A stretch of 6,838 nt of DNA from an uncultured Limnohabitans sp. (GTDB taxonomy: Bacteria > Pseudomonadota > Gammaproteobacteria > Burkholderiales > Burkholderiaceae_C): contig NZ_CALBEX010000367.1 in assembly GCF_937889215.1 (NCBI RefSeq), positions 1 through 6,838 of the forward strand, in the 5' to 3' direction. Numbering within the stretch: position 1 is the first letter of the stretch; every line of letters begins with the position of its first letter. Below the pieces are notes generated by a model. The model saw only the letters and a list, made by a program, of their open reading frames with translations. It had not been told where the DNA came from and searched no databases. Below, one piece after another: positions 3,356 to 6,106 of this stretch. A program made the position numbers and the translations under genes.

Positions 3356-3811
3356 ATGGCCCTCCAGAAACTCCAACTGTCCCTGCAATTTGGCGACATC
3401 CCCTACGCCGCGCGACACCGAGCAGCCCTGCCCCGCCACGCGGTAACCCGTGCGATTCGCCACGCCTTGGCCGATGATGCAGAGATCACGGTGCGCATCG
3501 TGGGCGAAGAGGAAGGCCGAGCGCTGAACCTGGGTTATCGCAAGAAGGACTACGCGACCAACGTGCTGACCTTCGACTATGCGCAAGAGCCTGTGGTGAT
3601 GGCCGACCTGGTACTGTGCGCCCCAGTGGTGGCGCGTGAGGCCAAGGAGCAAGGCAAGACGCTGGCGGCGCATTACGCGCATTTGCTGGTGCACGCTACT
3701 TTGCACGCGCAGGGCTGGGACCATGAGACGAGCGAGGCCGATGCCGAGGAGATGGAGGCTTATGAGGTGGACATCTTGGCGGGGTTGGGGTTGAAGAACC
3801 CTTATCTGTAG
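3356..3811 (+). CDS. ybeY: Endoribonuclease YbeY, rRNA maturation factor
   Basis: YbeY is a zinc-dependent endoribonuclease needed for 16S rRNA 3'-end maturation and ribosome quality control. The protein has 151 residues, typical for the family. The zinc-binding signature H-x3-H-x5-H is intact as [11 protein letters not shown] (H113, H117, H123). The upstream substrate-channel motif is [17 protein letters not shown] (58-74). It keeps the conserved arginine R62 but has TNVLTF where many homologues have TDVLSF, a conservative difference. The first 20 or so residues are family-variable, so the ATG at 3356 is supported mainly by its spacing, 20 bases after phoH. The ribosome site is weak (GAG-containing), consistent with coupled translation. 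It is the last gene on the plus strand before the convergent gap, and a 76-base hairpin begins 39 bases after its stop. Confidence 0.96.
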
Positions 3812-3850: not shown

Positions 3851-3926
3851 GCCTCGAATGGGGTGGGGCCGGGTTCCTCATGCCGGGGTACCGGAAATCG
3901 TCACCCGGCCCCACCCCATTCGAGGC
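3851..3926 (+). repeat. Conserved-core hairpin A, 76 bases (perfect 24-bp stem, 28-base interior)
   Basis: The left arm 3851-3874 and right arm 3903-3926 are perfect reverse complements over 24 bases. The interior 3875-3902 is symmetric: eight unpaired bases (TCCTCATG), a 4-bp stem CCGG/CCGG around tetraloop GGTA centred exactly on the axis, then eight unpaired bases (AAATCGTC). Hairpin B on the other strand has nearly the same interior (25 of 28) and the same five inner stem pairs (CGGGT/ACCCG), but a largely different outer 19-bp stem. The element starts 39 bases after the ybeY stop and would form in that transcript. A T-run at 3937-3943 begins ten bases after the stem, too far for a standard terminator. 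The 5' arm is strongly G-rich. I do not recognise it as a named family. Its function is unknown; mobile palindrome or 3'-UTR structure are the main options. Confidence 0.85.
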
Positions 3927-4026
3927 TGTGGTGCAGTTTTTTTAACCCGCTGGGAATCTGTTGATCTGGCCCAATTAAGTTTGAATGGCCCATGTTTTTG
4001 TCGGCTATGCGGATATTTTTATCTTT

Positions 4027-4102
4027 GTCGGAGTCCCACCCCTGTGGGCGATGGCTTGCAGGGCGTGTTCCACGCCCATCGCCCACAGGGGTAGGCTCCT
4101 AC
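4027..4102. repeat. REP doublet (REPIN-like palindrome)
   Basis: Two inverted units flank a 21-base spacer. On the plus strand the first unit (4027-4054) begins GTCGGAGTCCCA. On the minus strand the second (4102-4076) begins GTAGGAGCCTA. Both continue CCCCTGTGGGCGATGG, so 4039-4054 and 4076-4091 form a perfect 16-bp inverted repeat. Each unit can fold by itself: CCCAC-CCCT-GTGGG in the first, and GCCTAC-CCCT-GTGGGC (one T·G wobble) in the second. A GTAG-type head before a short hairpin, in an inverted pair, is the known form of REP sequences mobilised by RAYT transposases. The spacer holds a further 7-bp hairpin, GGGCGTG-TTC-CACGCCC (4061-4077). No RAYT gene is in the window. The palindrome is certain; its assignment to the REP class is inference. 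Confidence 0.7.
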
Positions 4103-4121
4103 AAATAAGAATGACCACTCA

Positions 4122-4197
4122 GGTGTGTGAGGGGATGCGGCGGGTGACGATTTTCGGTACCCCGTTATGAGGAACCCGCCGCATCCCCTCACACACC
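4122..4197 (-). repeat. Conserved-core hairpin B, 76 bases (perfect 24-bp stem, 28-base interior)
   Basis: Arms 4122-4145 and 4174-4197 are perfect reverse complements over 24 bases around the interior 4146-4173. Read on the minus strand, the sense of dbpA, the interior begins TCCTCATA, has CGG-GGTA-CCG at the centre, and ends AAATCGTC. It matches hairpin A except at interior positions 8, 9 and 20. Positions 9 and 20 are the outer pair of the mini-stem: C-G in A, A·A in B. Stem lengths, interior length and the inner CGGGT/ACCCG pairs are identical to A, whereas the outer 19 bp differ at most positions. It begins 21 bases after the dbpA stop. No T-run follows the stem in the dbpA direction, so it is not an ordinary intrinsic terminator. 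Confidence 0.85.
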
Positions 4198-4218: not shown

Positions 4219-5628
<1,410 letters not shown>

Positions 5629-5634
5629 GCGGGG

Positions 5635-5640
5635 ATTATC
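5635..5640 (-). promoter_or_regulatory. Putative -10 element (GATAAT) for a leaderless dbpA transcript
   Basis: On the minus strand GATAAT ends six bases before the dbpA ATG, the same spacing as at the LysR gene, with shared flanks ACGATAAT-NNN-CGCATG. No purine-rich ribosome site lies between dtd and dbpA. A possible -35, TTGAGT, overlaps the end of dtd but is 20 bases away, which is long. If real, dbpA can be expressed independently of the transporter-dtd transcript. Confidence 0.45.
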
Positions 5641-5662
5641 GTTGCCCACCCCGAGCAGCGAC

Positions 5663-6106
5663 TCAAGCCGACATGCGCATCGGGATGGTGATGGGGCCAT
5701 CGTTGATGAGGGCTACTTTCATGTCGGCGGCAAAACGGCCGGTTTGCACCACCGAGTGGGCTTTTTGCGCTTGAGACACAAAGTGCTCGTACAAGCGCCG
5801 CCCTTCATCGGGCGCGGCGGCTTGGGTGAAGCTGGGGCGGTTACCGCCCGCCACATCGGCGGCCAGCGTGAACTGGCTCACCACCAGCAAACCACCGCCC
5901 ACATCCTGCACGCTCAGGTTCATCTTGCCCGCCTCGTCGCTGAAGATGCGCAGTTTCAAAATTTTGGCCAGCATCTTGTCGGCCACCGCATCGGTATCGC
6001 CCTTTTCGGCGCACAGCAGCACCAGCAAACCCGCGTCGATCTGGCCGATGACCTCGTCATCGACACGCACACTGGCTTCACTCACCCGTTGCAACACAAC
6101 AATCAT
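5663..6106 (-). CDS. dtd: D-aminoacyl-tRNA deacylase Dtd
   Basis: Dtd hydrolyses the ester bond of D-aminoacyl-tRNAs (and Gly-tRNA-Ala), freeing mischarged tRNA in the cytoplasm. The 147-residue length is typical. The start [20 protein letters not shown] is characteristic of the family. The signature SQFTLAAD is at 77-84, GNRPSF at 88-93, and the C-terminal Gly-cisPro loop NDGPITI at 135-141 supplies the chiral-proofreading dipeptide G137-P138. These are the two catalytic-site motifs of the family and both are intact. The ATG at 6106 overlaps the TGA of the upstream transporter gene in ATGA, so the two genes are very probably translationally coupled. dbpA follows after 34 bases. The short C-terminal extension after GPITI (PMRMSA) is ordinary. 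Confidence 0.97.

What the first reader, a model, noticed from the sequence alone, without database searches (positions are those of the whole stretch)
3851..4197. Two 76-base hairpins with a shared 38-base core but different, perfectly self-complementary outer arms
Hairpins A (3851-3926) and B (4197-4122 on the minus strand) have identical geometry: 24-bp perfect stem, 28-base interior, 24-base return arm. The core (five inner stem pairs CGGGT/ACCCG plus the interior) matches at 35 of 38 positions. The outer 19 bp of the two stems match at only a minority of positions, yet each is perfectly paired. Ordinary duplication followed by drift would leave mispaired arms. So either pairing is strongly selected, or the arms are made locally, for example by an element that inserts into a pre-existing palindrome or copies one flank by fold-back synthesis. 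An inside-out design, with constant centre and variable arms, fits none of the repeat families I know.
Basis: seen in the sequence. Interest (0 to 1): 0.82.

Follow-up and report, generated by a model that had tools for sequence, protein, structure and literature searches.

The report
Hairpin repeats, fixed tip, changing stems
The two hairpins belong to a repeat family scattered through the chromosomes of freshwater Limnohabitans bacteria and some relatives: the tip is nearly constant, the 24-25 base-pair stem differs from place to place, and changes on one side of the stem are matched on the other, so each copy likely works as a folded single strand, though what binds it and what it does remain untested.

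Summary
Both hairpins are real. A structure model built from 31 relatives finds copies in 88 of 90 same-genus genomes and 31 of 141 sampled genera of the family. Pairing falls to background outside the stem.

The arms are not made locally. At the same ybeY-dbpA site, orthologous hairpins carry different arms that still pair; 10 of 29 pairs changed on both sides. The hairpins are 92-96% identical between genomes, the spacer 44%. Copies in frame inside uvrA differ about 4-6 times less at silent sites than flanking codons. Wobble pairs favour one strand, 77 to 11.

So pairing is strongly selected, on one strand. Copies face both ways relative to genes and often form inverted pairs like REP doublets (REPINs), but have longer, variable stems and a constant inner tip. 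No partner enzyme or function was found; a Y1 transposase was checked and not linked.

The parts
3851..3926 (-). Hairpin A, 76 bases, 24-bp perfect stem; working strand inferred to be minus
   Evidence: arms; model R1 95.4 bits on minus against 44.7 on plus; fold z -9.7
3851..3874 (.). Arm of A, locus-specific; its last five bases CGGGT belong to the shared core
3875..3902 (-). Constant tip of A; on the minus strand GACGATTTCCGGTACCCCGGCATGAGGA, with a 4-bp mini-hairpin
3903..3926 (.). Return arm of A
4122..4197 (+). Hairpin B, 76 bases, 24-bp perfect stem; working strand inferred to be plus
   Evidence: arms; model R1 91.1 bits on plus against 40.4 on minus; fold z -11.0
4122..4145 (.). Arm of B, locus-specific
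4146..4173 (+). Constant tip of B; on the plus strand GACGATTTTCGGTACCCCGTTATGAGGA
4174..4197 (.). Return arm of B
3356..3811 (+). ybeY (endoribonuclease), ends 39 bases before hairpin A
   Evidence: PF02130; TIGR00043 above cut-off
4219..5700 (-). dbpA (DEAD-box RNA helicase), stop 21 bases beyond hairpin B; start codon not settled
   Evidence: NF008744 above cut-off; PF03880

Best explanation
The two hairpins are copies of a dispersed chromosomal palindrome family whose 24-25 bp stems stay paired through matched changes on both sides, likely because each copy acts as one folded strand that a still unidentified protein would grip at the constant tip. Shown: the family, the near-fixed geometry, compensatory change at one orthologous site, strand-specific wobble, constraint at ybeY-dbpA and inside uvrA, and near-identical pairs at different places of one genome. 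Inferred: that copies spread long ago as inverted pairs, as REP doublets do; that selection sees a folded single strand (I lean to ssDNA over RNA); that the tip is the recognition site. Arms differ between loci because the copies are old and only pairing, length and tip are held; double changes are slow, so arms look conserved within one locus and unrelated between loci.
For: Family and geometry. Covariation over 31 diverse copies: 25 of 29 pairs changed on both sides, score 0.817 against 0.199 shuffled, 0 of 500 shuffles as high. At the ybeY-dbpA site alone, 17 sequences: 10 of 29 pairs changed on both sides, score 0.233 against 0.107, 0 of 500. Strand: 96.1% of cells paired on the working strand against 92.5% on the other; 77 A.C against 11 G.T mismatches on the core strand over 77 distinct hairpins, 15 of 17 arm clusters leaning one way, 2 tied, 0 the other way. 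Constraint: A 92.3%, B 96.4%, spacer 43.9%, dbpA end 73.7% identity counting gaps (92.6, 96.6, 58.8, 88.9 without; shuffled spacer 23.8 and 42.3; 60 sampled pairs of 15 genomes). uvrA: fourfold-site difference 5.5% (23 sequences) and 6.2% (24) in the hairpins, 23.4% and 34.2% in flanking domains (27 each). Mobility: four near-identical pairs each in G315 and G322 at different places; filled and empty uvrA alleles, all 44 readable linkers a multiple of three.
Against: No partner protein was found. Hairpins in the first set were collected with a near-exact core, so part of the tip's constancy is by selection; in other genera the GTA loop is replaced (6 of 94 working-strand rows). Some orthologous sites have lost or broken the hairpins (L288, L290, L301, L302, L305, L310), so they are dispensable. 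Template-switch correction of palindromes could maintain pairing without function; it would not by itself explain silent-site constraint of tip and arms or the strand bias, but no call tests it. Clear excision or target duplication was not mapped for an intergenic copy.
Confidence: 0.55

Rival explanations
1. A structured RNA: the working strand is transcribed and the hairpin acts in mRNA or as a small RNA, for example protecting or marking transcript ends. Because pairs are inverted, a transcript from either side would carry one hairpin in the working orientation.
For: Strand-specific wobble; possible tandem G.A pairs exchanged for standard pairs at 27-52 (A.G 66, C-G 18 of 84 rows; in 12 of those 18 the next pair is standard or wobble too); ybeY and dbpA are convergent, so each mRNA would reach one working hairpin; the BRE paper reports an 80-nt Northern band from a BRE copy (passages and section 14), relevant only if BRE is this family.
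Against: Intergenic copies show no fixed relation to gene direction: convergent 54, same direction 75, divergent 25 of 154, orthologues counted. The first uvrA hairpin has its working strand antisense to uvrA, yet is as constrained as the second (5.5% against 6.2%).
Confidence: 0.25
2. Non-autonomous DNA moved by the resident Y1 (RAYT-type) transposase, that is, a REPIN in the strict sense.
For: One Y1 gene or more in 85 of 90 same-genus genomes, 56 of 56 good ones; hairpins nested in GGGGTCAGATC inverted repeats in the G303/G306 group, and such palindromes lie in 3 of 11 Y1 loci looked at; Y1 is commoner in hairpin-bearing family genomes (50 of 57 against 242 of 342, Fisher p 0.006; lineage not corrected).
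Against: No R1 match in 30 Y1 loci of about 3 kb or in 11 loci of 7-8 kb. Seven of 57 hairpin-bearing genomes have no Y1 match, among them G073, G179 and G257, at least 99% complete.
Confidence: 0.12
3. Arms generated locally by insertion into a palindrome or by fold-back copying of a flank.
For: In the G303/G306 group the hairpin is nested in an outer inverted repeat with near-constant ends while the stem differs from copy to copy.
Against: Near-fixed stem length; no stem above 8 bp in 13 empty uvrA linkers; compensatory change in place at ybeY-dbpA.
Confidence: 0.05

Closest known systems
BRE, Beta-proteobacterial repeat element (PMC3110155, 2011; section 14 and passages seen)
   Same: 75-91 bp in Bordetella, chromosomal only, mostly intergenic, some copies wholly inside genes, partial conserved matches of about 40-60 bp, hosts include Comamonadaceae (Polaromonas, Delftia, Acidovorax, Rhodoferax).
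   Different: Described with close tandem arrays and as a VNTR; the text has no 'hairpin' and uses 'palindromic' only in a reference. Its sequence is in a supplement and figure that I could not see, so identity is untested.
REP doublets / REPINs (PMC3116915, passages; PMC3733652, abstract, passages, sections 6, 15, 16 and part 1 of 17)
   Same: Inverted pairs separated by a spacer, mostly intergenic, compensatory changes, copies inside uvrA and other repair genes.
   Different: REP stems are 5-13 bp (GTAG) or 8-9 bp (CGTC) with a tag at the foot; here the stem is 24-25 bp and the constant part is the inner tip. GTAG REPs often flank a tyrosine transposase gene; these do not.
Rickettsia palindromic elements (RPE), seen only through PMC3733652
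   Same: Palindromes read through in frame inside protein genes.
   Different: Different hosts; no sequence comparison made here.

Membership tests
REP / REPIN (GTAG or CGTC) | Stem of 5-13 bp | tested here: not met
   24-26 pairs in 176 of 223 copies; range for REPs from Table 1 of PMC3733652
REP / REPIN (GTAG or CGTC) | GTAG or CGTC tag at one end (foot) of the hairpin | tested here: not met
   Sequences printed with flanks show no such conserved foot. CGTC does sit at the inner end of the stem on the core strand, a weak likeness, and it varies
REP / REPIN (GTAG or CGTC) | Inverted doublets | tested here: met
   Window A/B, ybeY-dbpA orthologues, pairs in L156 and L166; single and tandem copies also occur
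REP / REPIN (GTAG) | Association with a RAYT/Y1 transposase gene | tested here: not met
   0 matches in 30 and in 11 Y1 loci
BRE | Sequence similarity to the published repeat | not testable with these tools
   Sequence only in supplement and figure; no supplement look-ups allowed and no named Bordetella or Polaromonas chromosome at hand
BRE | About 90 bp, chromosomal, partly in genes, Betaproteobacteria | tested here: met
   76-82 nt hairpins; no match in plasmids, phages or viral contigs; in uvrA
BRE | Tandem arrays with no or few bases between copies | tested here: inconclusive
   Direct pairs start 141-159 bases apart, so not adjacent; other genera were not examined for this
Rfam families | Match at gathering score | tested here: not met
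   0 matches in the window

The most novel reading that the evidence does not exclude
An inside-out class of bacterial palindromic repeat: the recognition site is the tip (GAUUU facing AUGAGG below a covarying mini-hairpin), the stem is a sequence-free 24-25 bp ruler, one strand is read, and it spreads as inverted pairs by an enzyme not yet known, even into uvrA without breaking the frame.
Probability: 0.35. Interest if true: 0.75.

Novelty: new variant of a known kind. Interest (0 to 1): 0.56.

Why it matters
Short palindromic repeats are common, but evidence that selection acts on their folded form is usually indirect. Here one family gives three signs of it: compensatory change at an orthologous site, strand-specific wobble, and silent-site constraint inside a DNA-repair gene. 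The constant tip is a ready bait for finding the partner, so the old question of what such repeats are kept for becomes testable in cultured Limnohabitans.

Tried and rejected
Integron-like cassette ends: considered because genes in L156 and L166 sit between inward-facing hairpins. Of the proteins scanned there (10 of 14 ORFs of L156, 6 of 13 of L166) those with a Pfam name include seryl-tRNA synthetase, an antitoxin/acetyltransferase pair, peptidases and an amino-acid kinase, and none is a recombinase. Dropped.

5' leader RNA: suggested by L166, not borne out by the wider orientation count. Y1 transposase as partner: kept only as a rival. Inside-out CGTC REP: weak likeness, CGTC varies.

Other collections: no match in viral contigs (two exact patterns), plasmids or phages. 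Literature searches; the core letters appear in no held paper except one unrelated hit to a 13-letter piece; the BRE paper came.

Rows dropped or limits: 2 of 46 uvrA loci lacked both anchors (L263, L265); L261 has Ns and further rows did not fit the peptide patterns; the 30 ybeY-dbpA loci are the best of 79 listed places in 78 of 90 genomes; A was aligned for 17 of 19 distinct sequences, leaving out the 79-nt variants L289 and L300; B's 19 include the chimera L310; 31 of 32 listed hairpins went into A1 and A2. Large R1 searches used strict filters and few candidates per genome, so counts are lower bounds.

Full report
What is there. The gap between the convergent genes ybeY and dbpA (named) holds two perfect 24-bp hairpins, A at 3851-3926 and B at 4122-4197, with 28-nt interiors, inverted relative to each other. 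Cores agree at 35 of 38 bases and outer arms at 8 of 19. Both fold far better than shuffles.

It is a family. The core with up to three mismatches occurs in 9 of 299 sampled family genomes, and an exact pattern in 54 stretches of named contigs, 43 of them labelled Limnohabitans or Comamonadaceae bacterium. Over 78 distinct hairpins, pairing is 76-99% for the 24 pairs outward of the closing T-A and 5-32% for the next 16 positions. With wobble allowed, 176 of 223 copies have 24-26 pairs; longer ones include copies nested in a second inverted repeat. I aligned 31 diverse copies on both strands and built structure model R1. R1 finds matches in 88 of 90 same-genus genomes, 54 of 56 good ones, in 57 of 399 family genomes from 31 of 141 genera, and in 3 of 399 order genomes, all three in the same family. 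The window's own genome, 82% complete, has 8 places.

Pairing is selected, on one strand. The remaining mismatches on the core strand are A.C, which is G.U on the other, 77 times against 11 G.T; 15 of 17 arm clusters lean that way, 2 are tied. On the working strand the interior reads GACGAUUU, a small covarying hairpin, then AUGAGGA. Among 94 distinct working-strand rows fit the full tip pattern and the other 8 still hold GATTT and ATGAGG; the GTA loop is missing in 6. In 84 pattern-fitting rows position pair 27-52 is A.G 66 times and C-G 18 times. Reading the A.G cases as tandem sheared G.A pairs is my inference.

Arms evolve in place. In the 30 best-matching ybeY-dbpA loci of the genus, A is found in 20 and B in 19, one of them a chimera. 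Most A copies carry GGCC-type arms; L299, L303 and L308 carry GGTT- or GGTG-type arms that still pair; L314 is a mispaired mosaic. Ten of 29 pairs changed on both sides. A and B are 92.3% and 96.4% identical across genomes, the spacer 43.9%, the end of dbpA 73.7% counting gaps or 88.9% without. Other loci show decay: left part of A fused to right part of B (L288, L301, and a shorter remnant in L290), a chimera (L310), or no element (L302, L305).

Copies inside uvrA. In the window's genome (L153) and in G305 (L161) an 82-nt form lies in frame in a UvrA-type protein of about 2,100 aa. A 400-residue piece of it matches in 90 of 90 genomes, though some matches cover only part and UvrA paralogues are among them. 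Of 46 loci taken, 44 could be read across the linker; every linker length is a multiple of three, from 13 empty ones (372 nt) to 765 nt; some keep only the first (L262, L264) or only the second hairpin (L266, L268, L281), and in L267 and L269 the first is gone with the stem base left behind. Fourfold-site difference is 5.5% and 6.2% in the hairpins against 23.4% and 34.2% in flanking codons. The first hairpin's working strand is antisense to uvrA, yet it is as constrained as the second. The 13 empty linkers hold no stem above 8 bp; 21 filled ones hold 18-26.

Mobility and arrangement. Four near-identical pairs recur at different places in G315 and four in G322. After serS and a tRNA-Ser, G315, G306 and G370 carry a pair and G371 at least its first hairpin at a contig end, while other genomes differ there by other sequence, so that site gives no clean empty allele. 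In G303 and G306 single hairpins are nested in GGGGTCAGATCAACATTAATT inverted repeats. GGGGTCAGATC-type palindromes also lie in 3 of 11 Y1 transposase loci. Y1 genes are in 85 of 90 genus genomes, but no hairpin lies within 30 loci of about 3 kb or 11 of 7-8 kb, and 7 of 57 hairpin-bearing family genomes show no Y1. Of 223 copies, 154 are intergenic (54 convergent, 75 same direction, 25 divergent), 44 lie in mechanical ORFs and 25 at contig or locus edges; orthologues were not removed.

What it works like, and what it is. It behaves like REP doublets: inverted pairs, copies in uvrA, compensatory change. By tested features (stem length, foot tag, transposase neighbour) it is not a REP. The BRE repeat of PMC3110155 shares size, chromosomal place, hosts and in-gene copies; its close tandem arrays were not seen here. 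I put the chance that BRE is this family at about one half. If so, the repeat is already in print and what is new is its structure, the selection on it and the uvrA case.

Commitment. Best reading: an old dispersed palindrome, spread as inverted pairs, retained because one folded strand is recognised at its tip. I lean to DNA over RNA because orientation toward genes does not matter and the antisense uvrA copy is constrained; this is the least certain step.

Noticed in passing
window 4031-4099: A third hairpin (20-base arms, 95% complementary, 4035-4054/4076-4095) lies between A and B and ends in GGCTCCTAC, resembling a GTAG-type REP (resemblance recalled). The spacer is 193 nt here against 106-118 in 12 other genomes, so it looks like an insertion; two others have 291 nt with a similar palindrome visible in one (L050).
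   Followed up: partly
L153:7181-7262 and L153:5402-5483: Two further in-frame hairpin copies elsewhere in the same UvrA-type gene, beyond the linker studied; the second has an equivalent in L161.
   Followed up: no
L278 (G347 uvrA linker): A shorter insert with a similar peptide but different flanking residues, perhaps an independent insertion at the same linker.
   Followed up: no
L218, L219 (downstream of serS): The tRNA-Ser copy next to serS is cut short and followed by unrelated sequence, while ARAGORN finds an intact tRNA-Ser elsewhere in the locus, as an inserted island would leave it.
   Followed up: no
L160:11580 and L163:2792: Hairpins between seemingly equivalent neighbours in G306 and G303 face opposite ways, suggesting that the centre can flip; orthology was judged from ORF sizes only.
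   Followed up: no
G303/G306 loci L158-L160, L163, L164, L167, L168: Outer GGGGTCAGATC inverted repeats and the tip are near constant while the stem between them differs in most copies.
   Followed up: partly
L166:5951-7981: Protein with RTX calcium-binding repeats and weak metallopeptidase matches beside a hairpin pair.
   Followed up: no
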